From NCBI RefSeq assembly GCF_026210795.1, contig NC_089451.1, forward strand, positions 3,084,001 to 3,148,000: a stretch of 64,000 nucleotides of DNA, read 5' to 3'. This document shows, piece after piece, positions 17,253 through 63,975 of this stretch. A program made the translations under genes and the position numbers. This DNA is from Rhizophagus irregularis. Lineage: Eukaryota > Glomeromycota > Glomeromycetes > Glomerales > Glomeraceae. Within the stretch, counting starts at the first letter, position 1. Every line of letters begins with the position of its first letter. The notes under the pieces are model-generated. The model was not told the origin of the DNA, made no database searches, and saw only the letters and a program-made list of their open reading frames with translations.

Positions 17253-17519
17253 TGAAGCTATTTTAATTATATCTGATAAATTGAGTCATTGACGTGTTTT
17301 CGGACGATAAATTTGTTGATTATTTAAATTTGAACGTGATTTTTGATTAACAGGGGAAGGATTATTATAATGTTTTTTCTTAAAAGAATGTGTTTTTTTA
17401 TTGTTCATCATTAAAAATAATATTTAAAGAGGTATTTAATCCTCATGGGATTCATTATTGTCAATAATTTTATCCCCTTGAAAATTATTAACGTCATTAT
17501 TATTGTCAGAAGTAAAATA

Positions 17520-19526: not shown

Positions 19527-20248
19527 CTCGAACAAGTTAAAACTTAATAAACTTACTCTTAAAATTGAACTTTTTCCTTTAAAAATTCTGCAGTAAAAAT
19601 GGTCTTGAATACAAAGAAGAAGAAGTTTCCATTACTAAAATTACATTCGCGATAGTATACTTTTAATGTGATAGTTATTGATGATCACTTTCCAAATAAA
19701 TGTACTTTTTCGCTTAATTTGGTATTTGTTGTGTGATCTTCAAGTATTTTTTCAGAAATTTGGAAGTGTGCAACGCGAACTTTAGAGTTCAAATTTATAT
19801 ATATATAAAATATGCATATGCATATTCGCAATTTCAATAGTAATACATTATTTAATGCTAATATTTCAAAAAATATTGCTATATGCAAATATTGCTTCTT
19901 TTGACATCATTAGAATAAAATCATAAATTGGGCACTTCTGTGATACTCTTATTGCTTGTTAAGTTTAATTATCAAATAATAAACTTTTGTAAAACAAAAA
20001 TTTTGTTGATCATCTTTTTTCTTTGATCATCATCAAAGAGATAAATAAAAAAAAATTAAAAAAAATTAAAAAATGAAAAAACAATTTAACATTTAATTAA
20101 ATAATGAAGTTTTTACTAAAATTTATTAAATAAAAATAATATATTGTTTTAATTATTTTATCCATTACAATATAATTTTTATATTAAAAAATTAAACCAA
20201 TAATACTAGTGCGTTGATCATTTCAATGATCAAAACATTGAATAATAA

Positions 20249-22021: not shown

Positions 22022-22815
22022 ATAATCTCCACTTTGGACAAATGAAATCAACTTTATTTATTAATTGAAAGTTGTCCAGGCGGGTTAAAAGCACTTGAAT
22101 ATTAATTTTCATGAATGTAGATGTAGTGCTTAGAGAAGATTGCATTTTTCTTGATGATATTAATTCTCTTTTCTGTTTTTTTTTAATTTAGAGCGTAATA
22201 TCTCCACTTTGGACAAATGAAATCAACTTCATTTATTAATTGAAAGTTGTTCAGGCGGGTTGATTCTACTTGAATATTAATTTTCATGAATATAGGTGTA
22301 GTGCTTAGAGAAGATTGCATTTTTCTTGATGATATTAACTCTCTTTTCTGCTGTTTTTTTTTAATTTAGAGCGTAATATATCCACTTTAGACAAATGAAA
22401 TCAACTTTATTTATTAATTGAATGTTGTTCAGGTGGGTTGATTCTACTTGAATATTAATTTTCATGAATGTAGGTGTAGTACTTAGAGAAAATTGCATTT
22501 TCTTGATGATATTAACTCTCTTTTCTGTTTTTTTTTTTAATTTAGAGCGTAATATCTCTACTTTGGACAAATGAAATCAACTTCATTTATTAATTAAAAA
22601 TTGTTCAGGTGGGTTGAAACCACTTGAATATTAATTTTCATGAATGTAGGTGTAGTGCTTAAAGAAAATTGCATTTTTCTTAATGATATTAACTCTCTTT
22701 TCTGTTTTTTTAATTTAGAGCATAATATATCTACTTTGGACAAATTAAATCAACTTCATTTATTAATTGAATGTTGTTCAGGCGGGTTGATTCTACTTGA
22801 ATATTAATTTTTATA
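22022..22815. repeat. 175-bp tandem repeat, about 4.5 copies
   Basis: Units begin at about 22022, 22191, 22369, 22543 and 22716. Each carries CTCCACTTTGGACAAATG (with small changes), a TTGTTCAGGCGGGTTGA segment and an ATTAACTCTCTTTTCTG segment. Spacing is 173-178 bp. The last copy is truncated. Diverged copies occur at 29.5-29.9 kb. Confidence 0.85.
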
Positions 22816-23631: not shown

Positions 23632-26600
23632 ATGGAAACGAAATGTAGTAATTTAAATATCTCAAATAATGATATCAATACAATGAATGTCAAAAATTGT
23701 TTATATTGTAATAAACTTTTTACTAAAGAATTATGGTGTGAAGAATGTATTAATTCTTTAGAAAAATTAGCAGAAAATGGTAATAAAGAAGCAATGTTCA
23801 ATTTAGCAATACATTATGGAAATGGAACGGAAAAGAATTTAGAAAAAGCCTTTTATTGGTATCAAAAAGCAGTAGAAAATGGTCTTAAAGATGCAATGCT
23901 TAATTTAGCCATACATTATAAAGGTGGAGAAGAAACAGGAAAGAATTTAGAAAAAGCCTTCCATTGGCATCAAAAAACAGCAGAAAAAGATCATATTAAA
24001 GCAATTATTAATTTGACCATATGTCATAAAAATGGAAAAGGAACAGAAAAAAATTTAGAAAAAGCCTTTTATTGTTATCAAAAAGTACTTATTTTAGCCT
24101 TATGTTATGAAAATGGAGAAGGAACAGTAAAGAATTTGGAAAAAGCCTTTTATTGGTATCAAAAAGCAGTAGAAAATGGTAATGAAGAAGCAATGCTTAT
24201 TTTAGCCATACGTTATGAATATGGAGAAGGAACGGAAAAGAATTTAGAAAAAGCCTTTCATTGGTATCAAAAAGCAGCAGAAAATGGTTTTGTTATTGCA
24301 ATGTCGTATTTAGCCATATGTTATAAAAATGGAAAAGGAACAGAAAAGAATTTAGAAAAATCCTTTTATTGGTATCAAAAAGCAGCAGAAAGTGGTATTA
24401 AAGAAGCAATGCTTATTTTAGCCTTATGTTATGAAAATGGAGAAGGAGCAGAAAAGAATTTCGAAAAAGCATTTTATTGGTTTCAAAAAGCAGCAGAAAA
24501 TGGTTTTATTGTTGCAATGTCTATTTTAGCCATATATTATATAATTGGAAAAGGAACAGAAAAGAATTTAGAAAAAGCCTTTTATTGGTATCAAAAAGCA
24601 GCAGAAAATGGTGTTAAAAAAGTAATGTTTAATTTGGTTAATAGATATTATAATGGTGAAGGAATAGAAAAGAATTTAGAAAAAGCCTTTTATTGGTATC
24701 AAAAAGCAGCAGAAAATGGTGCTAAAGAAGCAATGTTTAATTTAGCCATATATTATAAAAATGGAGAAGGACCAGATAAGAATTTAGGAGAAGCCTTTTA
24801 TTGGTATCAAAAAGCAGCAGAAAATGGTGTTAAAGAAGCAATGATTAATTTAGCCATATGTTATAAAAATGGAGAAGGAACTGAAAAGAATATAGAAAAA
24901 GCCTTTCATTGGTTTCAAAAAGTAGCAGAAAATGGTATTAAAGAAGCAATGCTTATTTTAGCCTTATGTTATGAAAATGGAGAAGGAACAGAAAAGAATT
25001 TAGAAAAAGCCTTTTATTGGTTTCAAAAAGCAGCGGAAAATGATTACACTGATGCAATGTTTAACTTAGCCATATGTTATGAAAATGGAGAAGGAACAGA
25101 AAAGCATTTAAAAAAGGCCTTTTATTGGTATCAAAAAGCGGCAGAAAATGGTATTAAAGAAGCAATGCTTATTTTAGCCTTCTATTATGAAAATGGAAAA
25201 GGAACAGAAAAGAATTTAGAAAAAGCCTTTTATTGGTATCAAAAAGCAGCAGAAAATGGTTTTATTATTGCAATTTCTGTTTTAATCGTATATCATGAAA
25301 TTGGAAAAGGAACAGAAGAGAATTTAGAAAAAGCCTTTTATTGGTATCAAAAAGCAGCGGAAAATGGTGATAAAGAAGCAATGTTTAATTTAGCCAATAG
25401 GTATAATGTAGAAGGATCCAAAAAGAATATAGAAAAAGCCTTTTATTGGTATCAAAAAGCGGCAGAACATGGTGTTAAAGAAGCAATGTTTAGTTTGGCC
25501 ATACGTTATAATAATGGAGAAGGAACAGAGAGGAATTTAGAAAAAGCCTTTTATTGGTATCAAAAAGCAACAGATAATGGTCACACTGATGGAATGTTTA
25601 GTTTAGCCATATGTTATGAAAATGGGAAAGGGACAGAAAAGAATATAGAAAAAGCCTTTTATTGGTATCAAAAAGCAGTGGAAAATGGTCACACTGATGC
25701 AATGTTCAATTTAGCCATATGTTATAAAATTGGAAAAGGAACAGAAAAGAATTTAGATAAAGCCTTTTATTGGTATCAAAAAGCAGCAGAAAATGGTATT
25801 AAAGAAGCAATGTTTAATTTAGCCATATGTTATAAAAATGGAGAAGGAACAGAAAAGAATTTAGAAAAAACCTTCCATTGGTATCAAAAAGCAGCAGAAA
25901 AAGATCATATTAAAGCAATGAATAATTTAGCCACATGCTATGACAATGGAAAAGGAACAGAAAAGAATTTAGAAAAAGCCTTTTATTGGCATCAAAAAGT
26001 AGCAGAAAGTAATAAAGTGAGTCCTAATAATAAAGTTGAATTATGTAATGAATGCAAACAACCATATACTGATTACCAGTGGTGTCAACAATGTAATGTT
26101 AAACAATTTCAACAAGATTTTTCAAAGTGGACTAGTAAAAATAAATTTATTGATAAATTTATTCAAGAAGCACAATTAAACGCTAAAAATAGTTATGAAA
26201 TTTTGGAATGGATACCTTATGATAAATTGTCAAGCATTAATTATTATGATAAAGGAGGATTCAGTGAAATTCATAAAGCTATCTGGTTAGATGGACCTAT
26301 TTTTAGTTGGAATTTTGACAAAAAACAATGGAATAGATGTAATTTTCAAACAGGTTATGAGATTATTCTTAAAACACTTAATAAATCATCAAACTTAAAT
26401 AATAAATTTCTGGAGGAGGTATGTTATTTATATTATTTAATACAAATTTTATTTTCTCTTGCAAAAATTTAATAATTTTTTATTATTTATATAGTGGAAA
26501 TATCATTATAACTGTCAGAAAAAATCATTTTCAAAGTTTATTCAATTCTTTGGAATTACTCAAGATCCAAATAGTTTAAATTATATAGTAGTAATGAGTT

Positions 26601-27379
26601 ATGCAAAAAAAGGAAGTTTAAGAAAATGTTTATCTGATATAATTAGATTTACGTGGCAAGACAAGTTACATTTATTGAAAAAAATTATATTAGGGCTTAA
26701 AGTAATTCATGAATCAAATTTAACTCATGGCGATTTTCATGATGGCAATATTTTAATGTCAGATAATCATAATGAGTTATTTATTATTGATTTAGGATTA
26801 TGTAAACCTGTAAGTGATTTACAGGATTCTGATAATGAAATTTATGGAGTTTTACCTTATATGGCGCCTGAAATATTAAGAAATAACCCCTATACTCCAG
26901 CAAGTGATATTTATAGTTTTTCAATGATAATGTGGGAATTTACATCAGGTATTCCCCCATTTAAATGTGAAGCACATGATTATGATCTGATCTTGAGTAT
27001 TTGTAAAGGAGAACGTCCTAAAATTATAAAAAATACTCCAAAATGTTATGTGAATTTAATGAAAAAATGTTGGGATTCAAATCCTGCCAATAGACCAACT
27101 ATAATAATGCTTGAAAATGTTATATCTGAATGGATTGGATGTATTAGTGATTATTATAGAATAAACAGTGATGGAAATTATAAATTTGATGTACCTAATA
27201 TTGATAATCAATTAAAAGATGTTATGTTGGAATTTGTTATGGCAAACAAATCTTTAGCGCAGGAACAAGTAAATTCTTCTATTACACAATCTCATCCACA
27301 AGCACATTATACAAGTCGCAAACTTGCTGAAATTTTAGTTCAAAAGACTCAGGGTTTTGAATGTGCAATTGAAGATTAA
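23632..27379 (+). CDS. Zinc ribbon-Sel1(21)-zinc ribbon-TKL-like kinase
   Basis: Two exons (23632-26418 and 26495-27379) with a 76-bp GTATGT..ATAG intron give 1223 residues. Order: a CxxC..CxxC zinc ribbon (C23, C26, C36, C39); about 21 Sel1 repeats of 36 residues (roughly 41-795); a second zinc ribbon (near 805-821, CNECKQ..WCQQC); then the linker FSKWTSKN..EILEWIPY and a kinase domain. The kinase has the loop KGGFSEI (near 874), the lysine in IILKTL (near 913), HGDFHDGN (near 1007), DLG in place of DFG (near 1028), YMAPE and a CW-x-P-x-RP C-lobe motif. The catalytic D, N and D are present, so activity is plausible. Sel1 arrays usually serve as protein scaffolds. One Sel1 repeat (third) is shortened by a deletion. 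The repeats are near-identical at DNA level, so copy number may vary. Intact, and paralogous to the split gene at 38.2-43.7 kb. Confidence 0.88.
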
Positions 27380-33900: not shown

Positions 33901-34584
33901 AATTTCAGGTTTAGAAAAAAAAGAAAAAAAAAGTTTGGAAAAAAAAATTTGAAAAAAAATTTTTAAAGTTTCGAGCGAGCCAGAAATAAAAATTCATATA
34001 ACAAATAAAAAACCTATATGTTTGTTTATACAATATACATTACTATAAATAAAGAAATTTTCGTGATATTTCTTTGAAAAATGAATTTTTTTATAATTAA
34101 ATTTTTTATCGTAACACAGTAGGTATAGTTTCCGGCGCTGATTCCTTACGAGGTTATTAATTATTAAATACGTGAGATTATTTCACGATACATGATGCAT
34201 AAAGAATTCACTTTATTAATTTGTGAAGATTTATAAATTTTTTCTTTTTTAAAAGGTGGTTTTTTAATTAATTGACAACTACATTTTTACCTAGATACTT
34301 GATATTATAAACTATTAAAAACGCGTATCAGTACAAAAAAAAAAAATAAATCTTATGCCGTTCTAGTATTATAATAACATGTGGTTTCGGAAGTCAGGTC
34401 ATCAAATTTCAACATTTTAAATATTTTTTTGTTTTTTTTTAATAAAAAAAAAATTACTTTTCGTTTTTTTTAAACCGAAGTTTATTTATTATATTTACAG
34501 TATATTTTTCGTTTTTTTTTGAACCAAAATTTTTCTTTTAATTTTTTTTATTTTTTGTTTTTAAATCTTTTCGTTTTACTCTAG
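30995..34584. other. AT-rich intergenic region
   Basis: Apart from the relic at 31007-31390 nothing is supported. TGACGTCA (about 32668) and scattered homopolymer tracts are the only notable motifs. Confidence 0.5.
31007..31390 (+). pseudogene. Relic of an unidentified coding exon
   Basis: In one frame, about 31007-31168 reads LKINYGVQLTPSRIKNELRQ then LLLKSELSDNLTKQGRSLPP and stops after INIILNLETVFYQCYT. Further open pieces with stops follow to about 31390. Residue use is protein-like, unlike the surroundings. The family is not recognised. Confidence 0.35.
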
Positions 34585-35240
34585 GTTCGACTTTGATACA
34601 TCAGCTGCGGACAATCGGTAAGCCGTCCTATTTTAAGAATAAAAAGAATTTATTATTATTGTTTATTATTATTAAATAATTACTAATATTTTTACATCTG
34701 AGATTCAGATTTGGAACGGACAAGAGGATACATCGGCTGAGGTAAATTCGGGTAAGTCTCTAATAAGAAAAAATTTTATTATTATATTATTATACTATTA
34801 AATAAATAAATAATAAAAATTTCTTTCCTTTTTTACCTTAGGTACGGTCTTCGAAGATCAAGGTGTCACACTATGGTAATTCGGTAAGTGACGGGATTTT
34901 TTTCGGCTGGGGCGAAAACGTCAGCTTCTGATGACTTACTATTATTTCTTTAGATAAATTACTAATTAGTAATATTTATTATTAACTAAATAGGAATTTA
35001 TATGGGTACTTAGCTTGAAAATTGAAACGAATGGTTTAAGACTGATCAGGCGGCAATTCGGTAAGTGATAAAAATATTTTGTAAAAAACAAATGAGCAAC
35101 AAAATGTATTCAAAATTTTTGGAAAATATTATTTTATTTAGACATTAATTGATATTTGTAAATTTCAATATAATATGTTTCTTTATTACCTTAGATAAAA
35201 TATTTAACAATTTAATGTCCCAGAGGCCCATCTTTTTCTT
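34585..35240 (+). repeat. Array of splice-bounded mini-exon units
   Basis: Successive segments each sit between a T-rich tract ending in AG and a GTAAG donor: 34585-34617 (ending GGACAATCG), about 34703-34750 (ending AAATTCGG), about 34842-34884 (ending GGTAATTCG), about 35013-35060 (ending GGCAATTCG) and a weaker one near 35196. Units are about 110-170 bp apart, 33-50 bp long, and share AATTCG just before GTAAG. They do not form one long reading frame. This could be a non-coding spliced RNA or a repeat derived from an exon plus intron. Confidence 0.5.
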
Positions 35241-38032
35241 TGCAAGTAAGAGACGATAATATAAAATAATTATATGATCACAAATTACTTATTAGTAATG
35301 ATTTATCAAATGATTATGGTCTGTTATTGTCTCACTAAAAATATGACGTAAAGTGGCTTTATTAATCAATAGCAAAGAAAGAATTCCTATTAATAATCAA
35401 ACAACAACACAAATATAGTGATTCTTAAAATAATTGATTTTACTAAACAATTATGATTTTATTTTCTTTTGTTTCGGCTAGTTTTTATTGTCACATCAAT
35501 GAAACTTGTTGGTATTTATAAAACAATTAAACAATTACATCTTTAATAAATTTGTTAAACAATCCCTAACCCTGAAATCGTATTATTAATATTATGGTTA
35601 TATAATAGCGATCCCTATGATCCTTATGCAAATTATAATTTCCACAAATGTTATATAGGTGATCTTAAATTAAGATTATATTATTACACTCAATAAAGCA
35701 TATTATTACACAATACAAAACTAAGTTTGCAGTATCAGTATTTTTTTAAAAAATGTATTTAATATTTTATATCAAAAAAGAGGAATACATAAGAATTCGA
35801 CTGATCCTAAAATATATAAACGTGGAATAAACGTATTTTAAATAAGCGAACGAGCATCTTTTTAAGTCTATATGATAGATAAATTATGTTTTTTAACGTT
35901 ACCTACAATTTACAATTTAGAGCAATAAAATATACTGTGTATGTACTTTTTTATCTAAGTTGAACCAGTCATTATTAGTGAACGATTTCTTTACACGTGT
36001 AGCTTAGAATACAGTGATGTAAAGTGACCAGATCACTGATAATTTTTAAAATGAGCTTCTTAATGACGTTCGAATGACGTCATGTAAATTTACAATATTA
36101 GAGATATGAAATTAAAATGATTATCGATAGTTTTGACCAGAATTACAAGTTCACATGATATTTTATTCTCTGTGACGACATGACGATCATGACGTCGTGA
36201 CGACGTGACGTTCACGTTATTTACCTTAATATTAATAGTTAATACGCATCGATGAAATTTTTAAATTATTTAATGTTATTAATGTGAAAATTTTATTATA
36301 ATTATTATTACATTATTGAAAGAATAGGTATTTTTATGTTTCCCTAATTCGTTATTGTAACATAATAATTGAGCTAACAGTATTTGGAAATTGATCGTAC
36401 GCTTTGCAATTACTATTAATTATTTATTAGACGTATTGGAAAATAATTTCCCATACGCAGCAATTAACCTGCGCAGTTTGCGCAGCAATGATTAAATGAG
36501 TCGTATGATTTAAATTTTTTATTACATACAAATATCGAAGTTTGATAAACGGTTACACAGAAGAAAATTACACAATAAATTAAATACGAAAAATATAATT
36601 AATTATTCTTTCCCTAATTTTTTTATCAATTCGAGATTTATTTTTTTTAAAAAAAAAATTCTTTATAAATATTTTATTACATAATTATAAATAAATTTCA
36701 CATTAATTAAAATGATTACTATATCAATTAAAATATTAAATAATTAATAAAATGGAAATAGTTCTCTCAGATGTAAAAGAAATTATCGAAGCTTTAGAAT
36801 TGGCTAATTTAGAAAAGAAAAGGGATTAGAATTATAATGTATGCAAGAAATCCTATATAATTTTTTTATGGGTAATTTAGTATTTTGTAGCTTCAATTTT
36901 TTTCACTTAAGTTCTGCGAGAAAATTAAAAAAAATTAAAAAAATTTAAAATTTAATAAATATGATTATATTTATAATTTATTTATTTAAAGATAAATGCA
37001 CATAAATAATGATATGCTAGTATAAGTGTATAACAAATGAAAATATTCATTTAAATTTTTATTTTCATATTTTAAAGAAGGAGCGAGCGCCATAGCATAG
37101 GACTTCAATGGATTGAAAAAGTGTATGGCGAGGCTGGTAAAAAAGTATGTATGGCTGACTACATACGTACAATTTTCTATATTTAGCAATCAAAATAGTA
37201 CGTAAGATTTAAAATCATACGTACTAACTACTAACAAAAAACGCAAACTATATACTATTTGATAAGCATGTTTTAACTAAATTAGAAATTTTTCGTTGAC
37301 TTTTATTTTTTCAGGCTTCATTGATCTGCGTAAGAAATGCCTATAATCTTATTTACCAGTAGAAGAATTTAAAAAAATTTTTTTTTTTTAACGTATAAAT
37401 AGCACATGGGCTAATCTAAATTTAGGATTTATTTATTGTACTTTTGACATCTATTTTTATCAAAAATAGATTTAATTTATATATTTAACTTTTATTGTTT
37501 TTTAAGCATATGATAGTTATGATACCCAGAAAATTTTTTTTTAAAAAAAAAAAATTCTTTTTTTTAATACTATTTGTGTATTTGTAAGTATATTTTTGAG
37601 TATAACAGGATTCTTAATTTATAATAATCATTTATTATACTATGTATCGTCAGATTCTGAGAACATAAAAAATACTATTGAATATAATTATTACAATTAT
37701 ATTAGTATGACGATATTTGTACACCTATATAATAAGTTTTAATTTCAATTCATACCCATTTGTCTATCAATTTCATTGAAGAACATTCTGATAAAAATGC
37801 TTCTTATAATCTTAAAATTTTTCAAAAATTAAGCTTTTAACTTAACACTTTTTTTTATTTAGATTATTATACTTAAATAAAGCTTTTAATTAAGTTTATT
37901 TAAATAATAAGATGTTAAAATACATAAATTGTTTGAAATTTTACGTATGTCTACTATACTAAAACACAGTGAAATTGAACCAATCTCAAAAATTTGGTAT
38001 ATTATGGAAAACGTGACTACTTATTTTATTGA
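35241..38032. other. AT-rich intergenic region
   Basis: No genes supported. A TGACG cluster at 36173-36214 is listed separately. Short frames near 37.0 kb are chance. Confidence 0.55.
36173..36214. promoter_or_regulatory. Cluster of TGACG/CGTCA motifs
   Basis: Within about 42 bp the core TGACG (or CGTCA) occurs about seven times, including TGACGTCGTGACGACGTGAC. A further ATGACGTCAT lies near 36074. The core resembles CREB/ATF-type bZIP sites. No gene starts nearby, so a regulatory role is unproven. Confidence 0.3.
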
Positions 38033-38200: not shown

Positions 38201-41154
38201 ATGGGAACTAAACTTGGTAATTTAAATATCTCAGGTAAAGATACTGATACAATAAATACCAAAAATTGTTGTAAACCATTTACTGAAGAATTATGGTGTA
38301 AAGAATGTATTAACTCTTTAGAAAGATCAGCAGAAAATGGTGATAAAGTAGCAATGTTTAATTTAGCCAATAGATATAGAGATGGAGAAGGAACAGAAAA
38401 GAATTTAGAAAAAGCCCTTTATTGGTATCAAAAAGCAGCAGAAAATGGTTATGAAGAAGCAATGAATAGTTTAGCCAAATGTTATGAAAATGGAGAAGGA
38501 ACAGAAAAGAATTTAGAAAAAACCCTTTATTGGTATCAAAAAGCAGCAGAAAATGGTCATACTGATGCAATATTTGATTTAGCCATATGTTATGAAAATG
38601 GAGAAGGAACTGAAAAGAATTTAGAAAAAGCCTTTCATTGGTATCAAAAAGCAGCAGACAATGGCAATGAGAAAGCAATGTTTAATTTAGCCATATGTTA
38701 TGAAAATGGAGAAGGAACTGAAAAGAATTTAGAAAAGGCCTTTTATTGGTATCAAAAAGCAGCAGACAATGGTTATACTGATGCAATGTTTAATTTAGCC
38801 ATATGTTATCAAAATGGAGAAGGAACAGAAAAGAATTTAGAAAAAGCCTTTCATTGGTATCAACAAGCAGTAGAAAATGGTCATACTGATGCAATGTTTG
38901 ATTTAGCCATATGTTATTATCATGGAGAAGGAACCGAAAAGAATTTAGAAAAAGCCTTTCATTGGTATCAAAAAGCAGCAGACAATGGTTATACTGATGC
39001 AATATTTGATTTAGCCATATGTTATGAAAATGGAGAAGGAACCGAAAAGAATTTAGAAAAAGCCTTTTATTGGTATCAAAAAGCAGCAGAAAATGATGAT
39101 GAAAATGCAATGAATAGTTTAGCCATATGTTATGAAAATGGAGAAGGAACCAAAAAGAATTTAGAAAAAGCCTTTCATTGGTATCAAAAAGCAGCAGACA
39201 ATGGTTATACTGATGCAATGTTTAATTTAGCCATATGTTATCAAAATGGAGAAGGAACCAAAAAGAATTTAGAAAAAGCCTTTCATTGGTATCAAAAAGC
39301 AGTAGAAAATGGTCATACTGATGCAATGTTTAATTTAGCCATATGTTATCAAAATGGAGAAGGAACAGAAAAGAAATTAGAAAAAGCATATTATTGGTAT
39401 CAAAAAGCAGCAGACAATGGCAAAGAGGAAGCAATGTTTGCTTTAGCTGTATGTTATTATCATGGAGAAGGAACAGAAAAGAATTTAGAAAAAGCCTTTC
39501 ATTGGTATCAAAAAGCAGCAGAAAATAGTTACACTGATGCAATGTTTAATATTGCCACATGTTATGAAAATGAAGAAGGAACAGAAAAGAATTTAGAAAA
39601 AGCCTTTCATTGGTATCAAAAAGCAGCAGAAAAAGATCATATTAGAGCAATGAATCATTTAGCTATATGTTATATAGATGGAAAAGGAATAGAAAAGAAT
39701 TTAGAAAAAGCCTTTCATTGGTATCAAATAGCAGCAGAAAAAGATCTTATTGAAGCCATGTTTGGTTTAGCCATGTGTTATTATCTTGGAGTAGGAATAG
39801 AAAAGAATTTAGAAAAAGCCTTTCATTGGTATCAAAAAGCAGCAGACAATGGCAATGAGAAAGCAATGTTTGCTTTAGCTGTATGTTATTATCATGGAGT
39901 AGGAACTGAAAAGAATTTAGAAAAAACCTTTCATTGGTATCAAAAAGCAGCAGACAATGGTTATACTGATGCAATGTTTAGTTTAGCCATATGTTATAAA
40001 AATGGAATAGGAACAGAAAAGAATTTAGAAAAAGCCTTTCATTGGTATCAAAAAGCAGCAGAAAAAGATCATATTAAAGCAATGAATAGGTTAGCCATAT
40101 GTTATGAAAATGGAGAAGGAACAAAGAAGAATTTAGAAAAAGCCTTTTATTGGTATCAAAAAGCAGCAGAAAATGATAAAGTAAATACTAAAAATGAATT
40201 TAAATCATGTAATGAATGCAAACAACAATATACTGATTATCAGTGGTGTCAACAATGTAATACTAGACGATTTCAACAAGATTTTTCAAAGTGGACTAGT
40301 AACAATAAATTTGTTGATAAATTTATTCAAGAAGCACAACTATATGCTAAAAATAGTTATGAAATTTTAGAATGGATACCTTATAATAAATTGTCAAGTA
40401 TTGATTATTATGATAAAGGAGGATTTGGTGAAATCCATAAAGCTATCTGGTTAGATGGACCTATTTATAGTTGGAATTTTAAAAAACAACAATGGAATAG
40501 ACAAGTAGATTATGAGGTTATTCTTAAAATACTTAATAATTCATCAAGTTTAAATAGTAAATTTCTGGATGAGGTATAGTATTTATTTTAATAGCAAATT
40601 TTATTTTTTTTTGCAAAAAATTTAACAATTTTTTATCATCTATAGTGGAAATATCATTATAATTGCCAAAAAAAATCATTTTCAAAATTTATTCAATTCT
40701 TTGGAATTACTCAAGATCCAAATAATTTAAATTATATAATTATAATGAGTTATGCGAAAAAAGGAAGTTTGAGAAAATGTTTATCTGATATAATTAAATT
40801 TAAGTGGCAAGATAGGTTACAATTATTGAAAACAATTATGTTAGGACTTAAAGTAATTCACGAATCAAATTTAACTCATGGCGATTTTCATGATGGTAAT
40901 GTTTTAATGTCAGATAATCACAATGAGTTATTTATTATTGATTTAGGATTATGTAAACCTATAAGTGATTCTGGTAATAAGGTTAATGAAATTTATGGAG
41001 TTTTACCTTTTATTGGGCATCCCTATAGGATCATGTTATTTAATTTCCGCTCAATATTGCTAACGCATTACGTCATTTACCAAATATCATTTACATTAGT
41101 TTAGCTTAATACTGTACAGCAATTTGAAAAACTGTTACTTAAACTATATTAGTA

Positions 41155-42782
41155 TTATCTATTGAATACAAATGTACAATTATTGAAAATTGATCCGTTT
41201 CCTTTAAAAATATCCTGTAAAGTTTCAGTTTCATTTATTGTCAATTTGTTGGATTTGTTAGAAAATGGAATTCGGCTTTCTTGATTGATTTCAGCTAATT
41301 TTATTAATAGAAATCAATAAAATAAAATAAAATAAAACAAACTATTAATAAATTACCTTTAAAAATTTCGCGTGCACTAGTAAAAGTTGATTTAAGTTCA
41401 ATTGGTGTTAATGCTTGCTTATCTGGCATTGAAAAATGTGGCAAAGGTTCTAAAACATCTAAAATTCCATATTGTATAATTAGTATATTGAAAATCAATT
41501 TAAAAATTAAAATTAAAACTCACCCGAGCCTTCCATTTGATCATTATCTATAAGAACGTTCATTAAGTTGTTTAAACTAACATTCTGCATTTTTTCTTTA
41601 GTTCTTTCATAGCTAGTAAATCCTGAATTTGATTTATGCCGGGTAATTGCCATAACTTCATTGTCACTAGTACCAAGTTCTTTCAATATTCCTACTAAAC
41701 TTTTTCGGGCGCTATGGTTGCTGATCTTTCGATTGCCAATATCAATACCACATTCTATTACAATTTCATGTAAAAAATTTTTTAATCGCTTTTCACCAAC
41801 ATGAAACTTTTGAAACCAACGATTATAAATAATATAATCTATAAATAAATAAATAAGTTAACTAATAAATGTCATATTACTGAAAAAAATAGCATAAAAT
41901 GATAAAGTACATTGAACTCACCATCTTCAGACACATATTCTCTTAAATAGAATTCTTTATCGGCATTACCTGGTCTTTTAGAAAAATATTTGTTATAAGT
42001 TTCCATTATCATTGGATGATATGGAATTCTTAATTTTTCATCATTTAATGAGCCATTAATACCCCTTTGATTTGTTTTACTTCGAGGAATATTTACATCA
42101 AAACCCTGACCATCAGCTCTAAACTTAAAATGAGAATATTGTAATGAATAGTGCTCACCACCTCTAAGAGCTAAGAATAATGCATTTAAAAAAAAGACTT
42201 TTTTTAACAATCCAGTGGGTGTGTCAATGTTTAATACTGGTGAATACAGTATTTTTTTACATTCTTCAACAGAAAGACCATCAGCTCCTTGAACATTGGC
42301 CTTTCCTTGTTCTGCTACATGTTTCATTTTGCCATCTAATACATCATATAATATTGGAAATTGTTTTCTTGAAGTAAAATCCATTGGAGATAGTGATGAT
42401 AAATCATTTAAATGTCGGTTTAATGCATGTATAGCACTGAGGATAGATCTAGCCTTGTATTCTTCACCAGAATTAGTCTTCATAACTGTTACGAAACTAC
42501 AGATTTGACTTTCTAATTCCTTTCTATCAGTAATATCTATGCTTTTACCAGTAAATCCAGCTTTTTCACGAAAGTTTTCAAATTGGTGAACCCAATTTGC
42601 TGTGGATTTATCTGTATTTACTACTCTTGACTTCTTTTTGAAAAAATTTATTTCGTCTTCTGTAGGTAAATAAAACTTGAATAGAAAATATTGTATTAGC
42701 AAATTAATATAACAATATTTTGGTAATAATAACAACATACTTTATCATTATTTATTTTATTTTTGTTAGTTTTTTCCTTCAT
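41155..42782 (-). CDS. Crypton-like tyrosine recombinase, five exons
   Basis: Exons (minus strand) at 42782-42741, 42675-41922, 41838-41524, 41458-41357 and 41294-41155 are all bounded by GT..AG. Phases fit exactly and give 450 residues without a stop. The ATG at 42782 starts MKEKTNKNKINNDK. The N-terminal half is helical (core-binding type). The catalytic half has arginine in LRGGEHYS (about 185), lysine in PRSKTNQRG (about 214), HSAR (H307, R310), TRHKS (H333) and nucleophile Y342 in FTSYER. This is the full R-K-HxxR-H-Y set of tyrosine recombinases, as in Crypton elements and related fungal and animal proteins. It would cut and join DNA through a 3'-phosphotyrosine link to move the element. 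The intact gene suggests recent or current activity. I saw no GCR1-type DNA-binding domain. Confidence 0.8.
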
Positions 42783-55800: not shown

Positions 55801-57807
55801 TTTATAAATAATGTAAATGATAAACTAACTTTTATGAATTCTTAATCACATATTGTTCAAAATATATGTTTTATTAATATTTTTTTTGTAATAGAAACTT
55901 AATTTAAATTGATGTTAGAAAGGAATCGTACTACGTCTTTAATTTTAGACGAAGCTGTTAACGATTAAGGTTTTTCTCCGCAGTAGCACGTGATTACTGT
56001 CCCGCAGTTATGAGATTAATTTTATCGAATGTACGAGTTTACGAAATACATTCGTAAATTAATGAATAACAATAGTAGTTATAAAAATGCACAGTATATA
56101 AAGTAAAATTTATTGTATAAATGAGCCAGCCTTAGTACTAAGGGGCTTATACGAAAAATAATTTCCCTTGTAATATGAATTTATAAATCAGTTTATTTGT
56201 TCATAAAATAATTTTTATAAAACTTACCGCAGTAGTGCTCCTACCGAGTCAACTCGAGTCGGGTTTGGAGAAAATATTCGACCCGACCTAAACAAAAAAA
56301 GCAAGACCTGTAAGTGATCGGTTCACATTTTTTATAAACCGACGGCCGACCCTGACTCGACCCAAGCATAGTTAACTAAATTCAATGAATTGATCTATAA
56401 ATGATCAATCAAGTAGATCTACTAAATTCGTGAATTTTAGCAATTAAATTAAGATAAAATTCATAATTTTATTATTAATCATTTAATATTAATATTTAAT
56501 AAAGAAATCAATAAAATTTTAAATACAACAGTTTAATTTGATTATTGGTTAAATTTACTAATAAAAAAAAATGGTTCTAGTTGTTATGTTCTAGTATCTT
56601 TATTTTACTATTTTTACTAATAGCCAACTACAAGGTTAATTCCGGCCGATATTATAATTTAGCCAGAGTTAAACACATCCGGGTCAAAAACTGTGTCAAG
56701 GAAATATATAACCCAACCTACCTATCAGGTCAAATCAACGATCCTATCGAAAAATGGTAGCTGGATTTATATGCCGGTACAACATGCCAGTTACACGTGA
56801 TTTCGGATAATTATTTACTTTAATTACGTCAAAATAGATAAACGATTTCACAAATCAAATATTCTTTCACTATATATTTAACTTTGTTAAGTCAATAATG
56901 CAAGGCTTGTAAAAGGTGTCATGTTCTTCGAAATCATAAAGAATTTCTGAATGAAAAAGGAGTTGCTTTAAAAAAGTGATTAAAATGTCGAAATAAAATT
57001 GTACGTTCAAATAAAAAATAAGCCACAGCAATTAATTTTTTTTCATAGTGTATTACTGTAATTGCCTAACTAATAAGCTTGAAAAATGAAAAGCGAAACA
57101 TTCTAATTTAGATAAGCAAAGAGATACACTTACATAATTTTGTAATATTTGGCAATACCAATGTCGTTAGATATCATATGTAATTTATATTTATCTAAAG
57201 CAAGATTGCGGCATTTTTAATACAGCGATGACTTTTTCCCATGGAAAGTAGAATATAATATAATAATTATTATTTCAAAGAACAATACGTTGATTTTGTT
57301 CTTATTAAAAAAATGATTAAAGTATTTTGAGTGTAAAACCTATGACATTATTAGTTACCAGTTACCATATTTTGAAGAAATATTTAAATTATTAACGAAA
57401 TTAAATGAGTTATTTTAAATTTATTATTATTATTATTACTATTTATAATAACAATAATTACTTTTATTTACCAGCAGTCGAATTTTTCTTTCATAAACAT
57501 TAATAACTATAGTAAAAATTTTTTTTATATTAATAATAAAGATTATCATTATCCGCATCACGTTAGAATTGTAGATTAATTGGCAATCCGGCATTATCGC
57601 TATATAAACGTATTAATAAATTTTGGGGCAAATTTATTATGATTTTTTATCATTTTGGAATCTGAGCTGCGTATACTATAGGTAAGTAATAAATATTAAA
57701 ATAAATTATTGATTTATTTTACTGTATGTGTACATATACCAATTAAGTATTTTTTTGACAAATTTTCAAAGATTTTCTTAAATAAATTAGGAAAGTATCT
57801 CAAGAAG
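55801..57807. other. Intergenic with worn GGGTCGGGT-type repeat
   Basis: Around 56228-56370 CGAGTCGGGT, GACCCGACCT, CGACGGCCGACCC and ACTCGACCC form opposed copies of a GGGTCGGG motif also seen at 1277-1340, probably ends of an old element. At the right side a TATATAAACG stretch (about 57600) and a GTAAGTAA..AATTAG intron-like interval (about 57682-57790) may be the 5' exon and intron of the gene continuing at 62038. Confidence 0.35.
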
Positions 57808-57824
57808 TATGGCAAGCCGTACTA

Positions 57825-57960
57825 AGTCAAAAGGTTGATAACTTTTCATCATGTTGATCATATTTTTCATCATATTTTATGATGTTTTTCACCATGTGAC
57901 ATGAAATTTTTTCATCATGTGTTGAATAATCTTCATCATGTTTCCTAATATGAAATTAAA
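57825..57960. repeat. CATGATGAAAA subterminal repeats, left arm
   Basis: Several inverted-orientation copies (TTTTCATCATG) with variants lie just inside the left end. They mirror the larger array in the right arm. Confidence 0.6.
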
Positions 57961-58544
57961 AATGTCTTGCCAAACTACTGGTTTTTTGATGTTCAGATTT
58001 AGAAAATAAGAAATTTTTTTTTTACAAACTTAGAAATTTACCGATTTTCTGGTATTTTGCCATTACACAAATATATATCACATAAAAAATTTTATCACAT
58101 CACGTTAACAGTATATGAACAAAAGAAAAATAATTCAATAAAAACAATACATATACATAAATATAGGTTGTAAAATTTTTCATATGGGAAGAGTTCGTAT
58201 GGGATATCTTTGATAGAAAATATTTTTTTTGAGATTTTTTGAGTTCGTATGGGAAGAGTTCGTATGGGACTTTTTAATAAAGATTTTCTTTTTGTAGGGT
58301 TCGTATGGGATATTTTTAGTAAAAATTTTTTTTTTGAGATGTTCTAAGATTCGTATAGGATATTTTTGATAAATAAAGATTTTTTTTTTAAGAATTCTAT
58401 GGGATGATAGATAAGTTTTTTTTTGAAAGATTCTAGGATATTTCTAATAAAAAAATTTTTTGAGATTTTCTAAGATTCATATAAAATATTTTTGATAATT
58501 TTTTTTTGAGAGTTTTTTTGATAATTCCATCAGTAAATTTCGGA

Positions 58545-58740
58545 GGGGTCAATATTGTACATTAATGTGCAATAAGTTCAATATTGTTCAATAATATATT
58601 GCACAAAATTTTAAATTGCACAAATTTTATGCAATAATGAGCAAAATTTTTTGCAATTTATTGTAAAATATTGTATATGTCATTTTTGCACAAAATATTG
58701 CACATATACACATAAGAGAAATATAGCCAATTAAAACTAT
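58545..58740. repeat. TTGCACAA-type short repeats, left
   Basis: ATTGCACA, TTGTGCAA-like and AATATTG words recur densely over about 200 bp. They are mirrored by a similar tract at 60610-60870 inside the same element. Confidence 0.5.
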
Positions 58741-58924
58741 TTATAACCACTGCGTTCCACTAGTCGATTTCGGTCATGTGACTTTCGGCTAAGTTTTGGC
58801 CAAAGTTCGGACTGTGCGAAATTTTGACCAAAATTTTGACACATGATATCTTTCCGAAGAATGATTATCACGTATATAATAGATAAGTGATAATCTTTAA
58901 CAAATTAATTTTTAAATTTTTTTT

Positions 58925-59215
58925 TATTTAAAACTCTTTCGAAGTTTCACAACGAAACTTTAAAAAAATTATTTTTTATTTTTCTTTTCAAAGTTTCGTT
59001 ACGAAACTATAAAAAAAAATATTTTTTATTTTATTTTTTTTTCTTTAATTTATTTTTATTTAAAACTCTTTCGATCGAAGTTTCACAACAAAACTAAATA
59101 AATTATTTTTTTTTCTTTTCAAAGTTTCATTGTGAAACTATAAAAAAAATATTTTTTATTTATTTTTTTCTTTTAATTTAATGTTTTTCAAAGTTTCGTT
59201 TCGAAACTATTATTT
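58925..59215. repeat. AAGTTTCG/CGAAACT hairpin array
   Basis: Five short palindromes of the form AAGTTTCGTTACGAAACT, with variants, separated by A/T runs. Confidence 0.6.
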
Positions 59216-59287
59216 ATTTTTTATTAAATATTTTTCTTCTATTGTATAGATATTGGCTTTGAAACTTAAAAAATTTTTTTTTCTTAT

Positions 59288-60300
59288 TTTATAGGTTTCA
59301 CCTTCTGATACTTGGGCCTTGTTAGGTGGTTAAATGCTTCAAAACTTTTTTTTAAAAAAGTTTTTTTAAACTTTTAATAATTTTTTTTTTTTTTTGTAAG
59401 TTACGTCTTCTGATGCTTGGTCTTTGTTAGGTGAGTTTCGAAGCTTTGCTTTCGCTTTGAAACTTTTAAAATATTTTCTTTTTAATTTCTTTCTTCTATT
59501 TTTAGGTTTCGGGTTTCGGATCATAGACTTTGGATGAGTAAGTTTTGAAGTGTAAGCTTCAAAACTTTTATTATTCAATATAAATATACTTTTTTAATAA
59601 TATTTTTTTTGTTTATTTGTAGGTATTGGCGTTCTTGGGCTCTTATAGGTGAATTTTGAAGTAAACACTTCGAAATTCTTTTTTTTTTTAAATAATTTTT
59701 TTAAAAAAATTATATGTTGATTTTTTTTTGTTTTGTAGATATCAACTTCGGTTTTGGGCTTTGATAGATGGTTTTGAAGCAAAAGCTTCGAGTCTTTTTT
59801 TAAATTTTTTTTTTTATTTAATTAATTTATTTTCTTTTATTTGGTAGGTTTCGGCTTCAGTTCTTGGACTTTGGATAGGTAAGTTCATTTTGAACGTAGG
59901 TTTCAGCTTCTGTTCTTGAACGTTCGATAGGTAAGTTTCATTTCAAAACTTATTGTTTTTTTAAAAAAAATAAAAAAAAATAAATTATTTTTTAATTTTT
60001 TTCTTTAATTTACAGGGTTTCAGCTTCCTGGAATATGGGGTAAGTGTGTGGAGGTCAGTTTGTTTAATGTTTACTTTGAAGAAATGTACTAACATTTCAT
60101 TATTTTGTAGGAAGTGAACCTTCCGAAGTATACTAATGCTTACTACCTATTAAAATATTATCCTAGATGCGATATTTCGGTATGGTTTTTTATTTTTTTA
60201 TTCTTTTAATATTTTTTATCTTCACAAACAGCTTCTAACGATTCTTTTTTACATTATTCGGTCTCCTTGGATGTGACAATTCGGTAAATTTCAACTTTTT
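59288..60300 (+). repeat. Tandem array of splice-bounded mini-exons
   Basis: About eight to ten units spaced about 105-120 bp. Each has a long T-tract ending TAG or CAG, then 25-35 bp (for example GTTTCGGCTTCAGTTCTTGG plus ACTTTGGATAG) and a GTAAGT/GTGAGT-like donor, followed by a TTGAAGC..GCTTCGAA-type inverted pair. Starts are near 59294, 59400, 59507, 59623, 59739, 59849, 59910 and 60015; later, less regular units end in ATTTCG and AATTCG before GTA. There is no continuous reading frame. Confidence 0.5.
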
Positions 60301-60609
60301 ATTCCTTTAATTGTTATTACATGCGCGTTTCGATTTTGCTAATTTCCTTGGTATTATTTTGATTTTACTCTTTGGATTTTTTATATTTGTGGTTGGTACT
60401 ATTTTATTTGATTTCGTTTATTGATTTCGGTTAATTTCAATTTTACTAACAATTTTACTTGGTTATTTTTTATATTTTCACGCGTTTCGATTTTACTATT
60501 CTTGGAATTTTTATATTTATGGTTGGGTTTAGATTTTGTCAATTTGCTTAGCGTTAGTGTTAGATTTTAGCCTTAGATTTTAGCGTTAGCTTGTATTTTT
60601 AGGTTAGAA

Positions 60610-60870
60610 TACAAATTATGCAATAAAGTAATATCAAATTTGCACAATTTATAAAGTTATGTTATTAAAGTTGCAAATATTGCACATTTCAATAAAGTTA
60701 CAATATATTATATAAAAATGTGCAAAATTTTGAACAATTAATTACACATTACTAAATATACAATCATTGTGCATTTTCAGGGTGCGCAAATCAATTTTTT
60801 TTATGCACAAAATTTTGCACAATTTTGCAACCTTTTTGTGCATTTACTGCGCATAAAAAATTTCCTGATG
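60610..60870. repeat. TTGCACAA-type short repeats, right
   Basis: TTGCACAATTT, TTGCACATTT and TTTTGCACAA words recur, mirroring 58545-58740 and suggesting that the inverted-repeat structure extends inward in degraded form. Confidence 0.5.
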
Positions 60871-61053
60871 TCATCAATAGCTGCGAGAACGTTAATGTAT
60901 ACTAATTCAATAAAAAAAAAGTTTCGCAATATTTTTTTGATAATTCATCAAATAACGCCGTGAGAATGTTTTTAATGTATAATTCAATAAAAAAAATGTT
61001 GCGAACTTTTTTTTTATTGAATTATATATTAAAAAACGTTCTCACAACGTTAT

Positions 61054-61560
61054 TTGATGAATTATCAAATTAAAAACAATCTCAAAAAAATATCTTTATC
61101 AAAAATATCCTATATGAATCTTAGAAAATCTCAAAAAAAAAAAATTTTATTTAAAATATTCCATACGAACCCTAGAATCTCTCAAAAAAATGCTTTTCTG
61201 TCAAAGACATCCTCCCATATGAACTCTAAGAGAATCTCAAAAAAAAAATCTTTATCAAAAATATCCTATATGAATCTTAGAAAATCTCAAAAAAAAAATT
61301 TTTTATTTAAAATATCCCATACGAACTCAAAAAAAAAACTCTTCTATCAAAGACATCCTCTCATATGAACTCTAAGAAAATCTCAAAAAAAAAAAAAAAA
61401 AAATTTTTATTAAAAATATCCCATACGAACCCTACAAAAAGAAAATCTTTATTAAAAAGTCCCATACGAACTCTTCCCATACGAACTCAAAAAATCTCAA
61501 AAAAAAATATTTTCTATCAAAGATATCCCATACGAACTCTTCCCATACGAAAAATTTTAC
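61054..61560. repeat. TCCCATACGAACTC / AAAATCTC repeat array, right arm
   Basis: Repeats of about 70-100 bp alternate ATCCCATACGAAC or ATCCTATATGAATC with poly(A)-rich AAAATCTCAAAAAA. The same units occur inverted at 58180-58500. Confidence 0.7.
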
Positions 61561-61789
61561 AACCTATATTTATGTATATGTATTGTTTTTATTGAATTAT
61601 TTTTCTTTTGTTCATATACTGTTAATGTGATGTGATAAAATTTTTTATGTGATATATATTTGTGTAATGGCAAAATACCAGAAAATCGGTAAATTTCTAA
61701 GTTTGTAAAAAAAAAATTTCTTATTTTCTAAATCTGAACATCAAAAAACCAGTAGTTTGGCAAGACATTTTTAATTTCATATTAGGAAA

Positions 61790-62010
61790 CATGATGAAGA
61801 TTATTCAACACATGATGAAAAAATTTCATGTCACATGGTGAAAAACATCATAAAATATGATGAAAAATATGATCAACATGATGAAAAGTCGTCATGTCAA
61901 CATGATGAAAAGTTATCATAAAACATGATGAAAAGTCATCATGAAACATGATGAAAAGTTATCATGAAACATGATGAAAAATCATCATAAAACATGATGA
62001 AAAGTTATCA
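61790..62010. repeat. CATGATGAAAAGTTATCA tandem repeats, right arm
   Basis: A 20-23-bp unit (ACATGATGAAAAGTTATCAT and close variants) is repeated about six to eight times, expanded relative to the left arm. Confidence 0.8.
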
Positions 62011-62037
62011 ACCTTTTGACCAGTACGGCTTGCCATA

Positions 62038-63975
62038 AAGAAGTTGAATCAACGAGGATAGAGCTGAAAAAGGCTAGGGTAGGCACTAAAAATTACAGTA
62101 AAAGGAATAGAGTAAATCAGGAAAAAAGTGTTACTGAAATTCAGGTTGATCAGCTGCCGATTGAGAAAATTGATACGTCATTATATCAGGTGACGCCGAT
62201 CAAGATACTTGTGTACAACATTCCAGCACGATGGAAAGATGAAGATATTATTAAAGTTTTTAGAAGTTTAGGTATAGTTAGAAGGATGTCAATTAAAAAG
62301 CAGTTTAAGTATAAGTCAGTTAAGTTATGTATATTTTTAAAGTTGGATCAAGTGGATGCTGAATGGAGAAGTAGACATAGTATTAATATACAAATGAACG
62401 ATAAAATGTATTGGTTTAGTAGATGGTTTCCAGAGTATATGAAGTTGTCAGATATTAGAGAAAGGTTTAAGTATACAGCTTACAAAGAGGTTAAGGCAGA
62501 TTTGAAAGATTTGACAGACGAAGAGATTTTGGAATTTTATAAAGGGCATGGAGATTGGTTTTATGGGAAGATTATTTTTATTAAAGGAAAGAAGTTTATA
62601 TATGTATATTTTGCGAATGAGAACAAGTTAGAACATGCAGTAACTGAGAGTTTAGGTCAGGGTTTACAGGAAGCTTGGATATTTCCACAAAAAAAAAAAG
62701 AATTTTGATTATTTTATTTCAAGTAGGAGCAGTACGTCAAGTCACGTGAAAGGAAAGGACGAAAATGAAATGGTTGTGGATAATATTGATAAAGAGGAGA
62801 TTTCTGACAAGGTTAAATATTTGGAAGATGATATGAGAAGGATTGTGGAAAAGGCAATTGATGATCAGGTAAAAGAGAAAGAGTTGATTAGAGAAGAGCT
62901 GTTAAAGTTCAAGTACACGGATGATGATGTGAGAAAGATTGTTGTAAAGGAAACTGATGATCTAATAAAAGAGCAAGAGTTGATTAAAGAAAAATTGTCA
63001 AGATTTAAGTATACAGAAGCGGATTTGGAAAAGAGAGTTGCAAAGGCAGTTAATAGTAGAGACTCTAGAATCAAGTATACAGAAAAAGAAGCAGAAGAGA
63101 AGGTGAAGAAAGCAGTTGATCATTTGATCAGAAAGCATGAATGGACCTAAGATTTTGTTGATTATGGTAAGTATAAATATACGGAAAAAGATGTGGATGA
63201 TATGTTGGCGTTATATAAATACACGGAAAAAGACTTAGAGTTGATGGTTGCACAAAAATTAGAGGAACGGATTAATGAACAAAGAGAAAAAGATAAAGAG
63301 ATAATTTCTAAGTTTAAATACACAGAAGAAGATGTGAATGAGTTAGTGGCAAAAGCAATAGAGGACCAGATAAAAGAGAAGAATTTGTTCAAAGAGAACG
63401 TTATAAAGACTGCAAGAGAGATCGCTGGTATGATGGGTTTAAAGTTAGATGATATAGATTTTGGCATTAGCAGTGTAAATAAAGATAGACAAACTGAAGT
63501 TTTGTTCCAAGAAATACAAAAAGCTAATGCTAAACAGATGATTAAGGGTGATATTTCAAAATCAGGTGATAAATTGAGAAAACTTTTGGACGTGAATAAT
63601 CATGTGATTAATGAAATGACTAACAAAGGGATGAAAGATAGAAGTGAGATTACGGGCAAAGATAATCATAGTAGAGAGGTTTCAGTGTCTCAAGAAGATT
63701 TGGAAATATATAATAAAGTTAATGAAGCTTGTTCATCACGCCTGCCACCTGAAATTAAAAAGGAAGTTGTGGTAGACGAAAAAGTTGGACAGAAGAGAAA
63801 TAATAAGGATGAGTTAAATAGAGGCATGGTTAGTAGTGATAATACTGATGATGATAGTGGATCAGAAACTAAAGATTTAAAGATAAATGATAAAAAGCAG
63901 GGAATACAAGGAGGAAAAGGTAAAAAGGGTGGCAAAGGTGGAAAATCAAAGAAAAAAAGTAAGAAAGGGTGGTAA
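62038..63975 (+). pseudogene. RRM-like and 32-residue-repeat coiled-coil protein gene, disrupted
   Basis: Three open pieces belong to one gene. Piece 1 (to 62708) has an RRM-like fold (IKILVYNIPARWKDEDIIKV, then RMSIKKQFKYKSVKLCIFLK). It ends because of a frame change at an A-run (62689-62699); a one-base change there joins piece 2 (to 63150). Piece 2 stops at an in-frame TAA (63148-63150), after which the same frame continues as piece 3 to 63975. Pieces 2 and 3 hold seven or eight copies of a repeat of about 32 residues built on FKYTEEDV..V.KAI and rich in K and E (coiled coil), then a G/K-rich tail (GGKGKKGGKGGKSKKKSKKG). No ATG lies near the 5' end; the start seems displaced by the element at 57808-62037. 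It resembles RNA-binding ORF1-type proteins of retroelements or a host RNA-binding protein; which is unclear. Confidence 0.6.

What the first reader, a model, noticed from the sequence alone, without database searches (positions are those of the whole stretch)
59288..60300. Tandem array of mini-exon-like units inside a non-autonomous transposon
Eight to ten units of about 110 bp each pair a strong 3' splice-site context (T-tract plus TAG/CAG) with a GTAAGT/GTGAGT-like donor 25-35 bp later. Selection for repeated splice signals without a long reading frame would be unusual. It could be a spliced non-coding RNA, a splice-site trap that exonises into host transcripts, or a protein gene made of micro-exons in changing phase.
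Basis: partly seen in the sequence, partly recalled or inferred. Interest (0 to 1): 0.72.

Follow-up and report, generated by a model that had tools for sequence, protein, structure and literature searches.

The report
Tandem splice-signal repeats inside a transposon
A transposon in a fungal genome carries eight tandem copies of a short block framed by intron-end and intron-start signals, most likely a duplicated exon-intron unit that makes no protein, but no RNA data were available to show that it is spliced.

Summary
Inside a 4,230-bp element with long terminal inverted repeats (57808-62037, AAGAAG on both sides) lie eight boxes of 24-32 nt at 59295-60039. AG precedes eight of eight; GT follows seven, full GTRAGT five; four of eight units pass a joint acceptor-donor scan. 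The pattern is on the + strand. GTRAGT exceeds shuffles (6 against 0.38), T-tract acceptors do not (6 against 5.1), because the DNA is T-rich. AG and GT are kept better than the box interior (one-sided p below 0.05 in 51 of 60 alignments, gaps left out), though the units share descent. The last interval, 60040-60110, has GTAAGT, TACTAAC and TTTTGTAG and leads into 69 open bases. A micro-exon protein is disfavoured. Most units also carry imperfect hairpins, densest here in the window, and a hairpin-bearing minisatellite that merely contains splice-like words remains a serious rival. No other copy of the element and no RNA was reachable. Best reading: a tandemly duplicated, probably splice-competent, non-coding exon-intron unit in a foldback-like non-autonomous transposon (0.47).

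The parts
57808..62037 (.). Whole element: long-TIR, non-autonomous, foldback-like transposon (4,230 bp)
   Evidence: Inverted arms and identical outer 16 nt TATGGCAAGCCGTACT; no Pfam match above cut-off in the 7 in-element frames tested
57802..57807 (.). Left copy of putative 6-bp target-site duplication AAGAAG
   Evidence: Flanks printed; one insertion only, so a TA duplication is not excluded
62038..62043 (.). Right copy of putative target-site duplication AAGAAG
57808..58540 (.). Left terminal inverted repeat with internal tandem repeats (inner limit approximate)
61055..62037 (.). Right terminal inverted repeat, longer by extra tandem copies (inner limit approximate)
58942..59208 (.). Five hairpins AGTTTC-N-GAAACT (one with a mismatch) without splice-like boxes
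   Evidence: four of the five pass the stem threshold
59295..59325 (+). Box 1 (acceptor TATAG, donor GTGGTT)
59401..59430 (+). Box 2 (acceptor GTAAG, donor GTGAGT), followed by 11-pair hairpin 59434-59464
59506..59537 (+). Box 3 (acceptor TTTAG, donor GTAAGT), followed by 12-pair hairpin 59540-59567
59623..59648 (+). Box 4 (acceptor TGTAG, donor GTGAAT), followed by 12-pair hairpin 59651-59678
59739..59767 (+). Box 5 (acceptor TGTAG, no GT: ATGGTT), followed by 7-pair hairpin 59774-59791
59848..59878 (+). Box 6 (acceptor GGTAG, donor GTAAGT)
59900..59930 (+). Box 7 (weak T-tract, CGTAG; donor GTAAGT), only 21 nt after box 6
60016..60039 (+). Box 8 (acceptor TACAG, donor GTAAGT)
60040..60110 (+). 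Intron-like interval of 71 nt: GTAAGT ... TACTAAC (60087) ... TTTTGTAG
60111..60179 (+). Exon-like stretch, 69 nt open in frame with box 8
   Evidence: no Pfam match for the frame that contains it

Best explanation
The array is a tandemly duplicated exon-intron unit: a box of about 31 nt plus about 75-90 nt of T-rich, often hairpin-bearing intron-like DNA, on the + strand of a foldback-like non-autonomous TIR transposon. If the + strand is transcribed, by a promoter of the element or by read-through from the gene it interrupts (same strand), the boxes can be spliced as tiny cassette exons and the last one joined through a normal-looking intron (60040-60110) to a 69-nt exon. The product is non-coding or frame-breaking, not a protein. 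Shown: the repeat, AG and GT framing on one strand, AG/GT kept better than the box interior, the canonical-looking last interval. Inferred: transcription, splicing, and any benefit to the element.
For: AG before 8 of 8 boxes, GT after 7 of 8, GTRAGT after 5 of 8. Exact GTRAGT 7.1 per kb on + in 59280-60120 against 0.5 per kb in the window and 0 on the - strand of that stretch; 6 against 0.38 in 1000 shuffles. AG/GT better kept than box cells, one-sided p below 0.05 in 51 of 60 alignments with gaps left out. Interval lengths of 71-90 nt (seven of eight) fit three introns that I read in this window, 72, 76 and 109 nt (and reading). The A of TACTAAC lies 18 nt before the last base of the last interval; TACTAAC occurs 4 times on the + and 3 times on the - strand of the window. 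In unit 8 the box interior has changed but the donor is intact. The five upstream hairpins have CAAAG or CGAAG where boxed units have GTAAG, so the donor GT is not a by-product of the hairpin (read).
Against: No RNA and no second copy. T-tract acceptors are no commoner than in shuffles (413 of 1000). Only 3-4 of 8 units have both signals near consensus, and at looser thresholds other stretches of the window score as high or higher. One interval of 21 nt cannot be an intron; box 5 has no GT. In 9 of 60 alignments the AG/GT test is not significant. Parts of the donors lie in hairpin stems. The box core CTTC is about as conserved as AG, which splicing alone does not need. The 'intron-like pair' measure also reaches 8 near 34381-34561, outside the element, and a second TACTAAC in the element (60444) is not followed by a nearby AG.
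Confidence: 0.47

Rival explanations
1. Neutral minisatellite: the unit of about 110 bp happened to contain TAG and GTAAGT when it was first duplicated; the signals persist by descent and T-richness and are never used.
For: T-tract YAG not above shuffles (413 of 1000); shuffles ignore shared descent, so six donors may be one event; only 3-4 of 8 units are complete; foldback elements elsewhere carry tandem repeats that seeded satellite arrays (PMC4079207, abstract).
Against: AG/GT kept better than the rest of the box at pairwise box identity of 49-84%, mean 64%; canonical-looking last interval with TACTAAC.
Confidence: 0.36
2. DNA-level function: the palindromes (AGTTTCG-N-CGAAACT kind) are binding or structural sites for a transposase or host protein, and the boxes ride along.
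For: 10 stems of at least 7 pairs in 58900-60110 (8.3 per kb) against 1.4 per kb in the window, the highest 1.2-kb count of the scan; five hairpins lack boxes; the THAP domain of the Galileo transposase has multiple binding sites in tandem repeats within long TIRs (PMC3688188, abstract).
Against: The hairpins lie in the core, not in the arms. Exchanging arms among units 2-5, or among the five upstream hairpins, gives as much pairing in 4 of 24 and 72 of 120 permutations, so no significant covariation. Does not explain the GT outside the stem or the one-strand polarity.
Confidence: 0.11
3. Protein gene made of micro-exons in changing phase.
For: Box 8 and the next exon are open together for 31 codons.
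Against: Box lengths 31, 30, 32, 26, 29, 31, 31 and 24; the longest fully open in-order chain uses 4 of 9 exons while all 100 letter shuffles do at least as well (mean 6.4); boxes 1-7 each end in a stop in one frame.
Confidence: 0.03

Closest known systems
Foldback-type elements (Tetris, Galileo of Drosophila)
   Same: Long inverted arms with internal tandem repeats; Tetris is also apparently non-autonomous
   Different: Here the splice-like array lies in the core between the arms, and the superfamily is not established. Abstracts and section lists seen only
Introners (transposons that create introns)
   Same: Transposon-like elements that bring splice sites; some families have TSDs (49 of 130) or TIRs (72 of 177) (PMC9860276, passages)
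   Different: Introner families there have median lengths of 30-654 nt and the element becomes an intron; here 4.2 kb with many internal AG/GT pairs, and nothing shows that it is spliced out
Schistosome micro-exon genes (MEGs)
   Same: Chains of very small exons
   Different: MEG coding regions are mostly very small symmetrical exons (PMC4350168, passages); here lengths break the frame
Transposable-element exonization
   Same: An element supplies AG and GT that host transcripts may use
   Different: Here eight candidate exons in tandem; exonization itself is not shown. Listings only seen
SP7-like effectors of arbuscular mycorrhizal fungi
   Same: Repeat-bearing genes in what I take to be the same kind of fungus
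   Different: Proteins with a signal peptide, hydrophilic repeats and one conserved intron before the first repeat (PMC11333574, one section and passages); no such frame here

Membership tests
Non-autonomous TIR DNA transposon, foldback-like | Long inverted terminal repeats | tested here: met
   473 matches, 3 mismatches, 2 gap columns between 57860-58335 and 61394-61871
Non-autonomous TIR DNA transposon, foldback-like | Target-site duplication | tested here: inconclusive
   AAGAAG on both sides, one insertion only; TA also fits
Non-autonomous TIR DNA transposon, foldback-like | Tandem repeats inside the arms | tested here: met
   Periods 23, 46, 51 and 156 in the right arm, 21-22 and 42 in the left
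Non-autonomous TIR DNA transposon, foldback-like | No transposase gene | tested here: met
   No Pfam match above cut-off in the 7 in-element frames tested; best was DUF6824 at E 0.08, below cut-off. The other listed frames were not tested
Non-autonomous TIR DNA transposon, foldback-like | Multiple copies in the genome | not testable with these tools
   No genome held; no second copy in the window; exact patterns absent from viral and prokaryote collections, which need not hold fungal DNA
Introner | Element is removed as an intron | not testable with these tools
   No RNA
Micro-exon gene | Very small symmetrical exons with an open frame across exons | tested here: not met
   Lengths and frames
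Spliceosomal exon-intron array | AG and GT at the ends of each unit, on one strand | tested here: inconclusive
   AG 8 of 8, GT 7 of 8, GTRAGT 5 of 8; one unit without GT and one 21-nt interval
Spliceosomal exon-intron array | Spliced transcripts | not testable with these tools
   No RNA

The most novel reading that the evidence does not exclude
A DNA transposon of this fungus has evolved, by tandem duplication, an array of non-coding micro-exons under selection for AG and GT: a multi-exon splice trap that captures read-through host transcripts or keeps the element's own RNA spliced.
Probability: 0.14. Interest if true: 0.75.

Novelty: new variant of a known kind. Interest (0 to 1): 0.42.

Why it matters
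If the boxes are spliced, this would be a transposon that multiplied exon-intron units without coding for anything, a natural series of similar micro-exons for testing exon definition in a fungus, and a way in which an inserted element could change or survive inside host transcripts. If not, it is a useful warning that T-rich minisatellites imitate exon chains.

Tried and rejected
Micro-exon protein: rejected on frame and length. Hairpin covariation as proof of an RNA structure: the arm-swapping test, done on units 2-5 and the five upstream hairpins, is not significant. Single-unit RNA folds beat shuffles clearly only in units 3 and 4 (z -3.4 and -3.3; the other six between -1.7 and 0.9), and the - strand gives similar values for those two. 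Known RNA families: none at gathering score; no tRNA. The bacterial promoter and terminator scan is not meaningful for a fungus; four of its seven terminator-like hits are hairpins of this array. SP7 link: considered and dropped. A link between the interrupted RRM-like gene and the LINE ORF1 of the window: best BLASTP expectation 1.3. Other copies: four exact-pattern scans, three of viral and one of prokaryote contigs, found none; a control scan of viral contigs with a LINE fragment of this window found no relative either, so that collection may hold no DNA of this fungus. Print: six searches that named the fungus or its group listed no paper on such an array; I saw only the listed rows, of 405, 16, 771, 535, 163 and 163 matching papers, so this is weak evidence of absence.

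The hand alignment was anchored on AG and GT; the tests made on it (column sets, 3.6% of random sets as conserved; Fisher p about 0.02) are biased for that reason. Searches used MAFFT but counted gap cells against the box; one search repeats them without gap cells and gives weaker values, which I use.

Full report
What the window is. The DNA is 26% GC and carries two genes with long Sel1-repeat arrays and kinase-domain pieces downstream (23632-27379, 38201-41104), a LINE (11904-19535) and T-rich introns. I take it for an arbuscular mycorrhizal fungus of the Rhizophagus kind; that assignment is from recall of such gene families, not from a search, because no genome is held.

The element. Between 57808 and 62037 lies an element with long inverted arms. 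The outer 16 nt are identical; 57860-58335 and 61394-61871 agree at 473 positions with 3 mismatches and 2 gap columns. The right arm has extra copies of a repeat of about 23 bp. AAGAAG stands directly outside both ends, so a 6-bp target-site duplication is likely, though TA cannot be excluded from one insertion. The site appears to lie in a gene on the + strand: an intron-like stretch 57682-57790 (GTAAGT to TTAG) ends 11 nt before the left AAGAAG, and a frame that is open after the right end has an RRM_1 match (E 0.00015, 22 bits against a cut-off of 20.7, no single stretch significant). That gene has later stops and may itself be decayed. None of the 7 in-element frames tested has a Pfam match above cut-off.

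The array. Eight boxes lie at 59295-60039, spaced 105-117 bp except one interval of 52. A typical unit reads T-tract, TAG, a box like GTTTCGGCTTCAGTTCTTGGACTTTGGATAG, GTAAGT, an imperfect palindrome, then an A/T spacer. AG precedes 8 of 8, GT follows 7 of 8, GTRAGT 5 of 8. In 59280-60120 exact GTRAGT occurs at 7.1 per kb on the + strand and 0 on the - strand; the window means are 0.5 and 0.4. In 1000 dinucleotide shuffles of that stretch the six GTRAGT are never reached (mean 0.38) and the four acceptor-donor pairs in 7; but T-tract plus YAG (6) is reached in 413. So the donors, not the acceptors, exceed composition. A shuffle does not model a repeat, so this may count one independent event. 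In a plainer scan the array leads the window only at the strictest T-tract threshold (4 against at most 2 elsewhere on + and 1 on -); at looser ones other stretches reach 4 on + and 6 on -.

Are the signals under constraint? Pairwise box identity is 49-84%, mean 64%, while the arms are nearly identical, so the array diverged before this copy was inserted, or the arms were homogenised. In 60 MAFFT alignments with different trims and settings, gap cells left out, AG and GT are kept in 28-30 of 32 cells against 73-79% of box cells; one-sided Fisher p has median 0.008 and is below 0.05 in 51 of 60. Among 43-75 adjacent column pairs GT ranks 1-6 in all 60, ties included; AG ranks 1-5 in 41 and 7-16 in 19. 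The box core CTTC is about as conserved. The cells are not independent and the units were cut out around these sites, so I read this as moderate support.

The last interval. 60040-60110 is 71 nt with GTAAGT, TACTAAC with its branch-like A 18 nt before the last base, and TTTTGTAG. TACTAAC occurs four times on the + strand of the window and three times on the - strand. The following 69 nt are open in frame with box 8. This is the most intron-like piece of the element, and it touches the array. That TACTAAC is a branch-point consensus is recalled.

Protein? Box lengths are 31, 30, 32, 26, 29, 31, 31 and 24. Joined in order with the 69-nt exon, all three frames have stops; the longest fully open in-order chain has 4 of 9 exons, and all 100 letter shuffles do at least as well (mean 6.4). 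A micro-exon protein is unlikely.

Hairpins. Ten stems of at least 7 pairs lie in 58900-60110, the highest 1.2-kb count of the scan. Boxes 2-4 are followed by the longest (11-12 pairs), box 5 by one of 7. Five hairpins upstream (58942-59208; four at the threshold) have no box. Exchanging arms does not lower pairing significantly (units 2-5: 4 of 24 permutations; upstream: 72 of 120). Units 3 and 4 fold better than shuffles on both strands, the other six do not clearly. The stems include bases 3-6 of the donor in units 3 and 4 and bases 4-6 in unit 2, which might weaken those donors; that is inference.

Verdict. I favour a duplicated exon-intron unit, probably splice-competent and non-coding, in a foldback-like element (0.47), over a neutral minisatellite with splice-like words (0.36) and DNA-level sites (0.11). 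The closest known kinds are foldback elements with internal repeats (abstracts) and Introners, transposons that bring splice sites (passages). About two-thirds of the transposable elements of Rhizophagus irregularis were unclassified before a recent curation (PMC11075540, abstract and one section), so an undescribed family would be no surprise. It is filed as a new variant of a known kind because superfamily, copy number and splicing could not be tested.

Noticed in passing
11904-19535 (-): LINE with endonuclease, reverse transcriptase and RNase H matches in one 1,782-aa frame (11904-17252) and an RRM-bearing ORF1 (17520-19535).
   Followed up: partly
23632-27379 and 38201-41104 (+): Two similar loci, each a long frame of Sel1 repeats (20 and 17 significant stretches) followed by a kinase-domain frame, with a T-rich intron read between them.
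   Followed up: partly
41872-42738 (-): ORF with a weak DUF3504 match (E 2.5e-5, below the curated cut-off), perhaps a Crypton-like recombinase remnant (recalled).
   Followed up: no
22025-22811: Tandem array of a 178-bp unit, 4.5 copies.
   Followed up: no
60936-61069: Short inverted repeat next to the right arm (38-nt arms, 92% complementary); no counterpart on the left was found by BLASTN within the window.
   Followed up: no
58598-58720 and 60610-60860: TGCACAA-rich stretches on both sides of the core, a weak second tier of inverted repeats (42 nt, 76%).
   Followed up: no
62016-62043: The right end of the element reads CCTTTTGACCAG shortly before the interrupted gene, and the frame is open across the junction; it could serve as an acceptor.
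   Followed up: no
34381-35400 (+): Stretch outside the element with as many intron-like donor-acceptor pairs (8) and three GTRAGT per 840 bp as seen; not examined.
   Followed up: no
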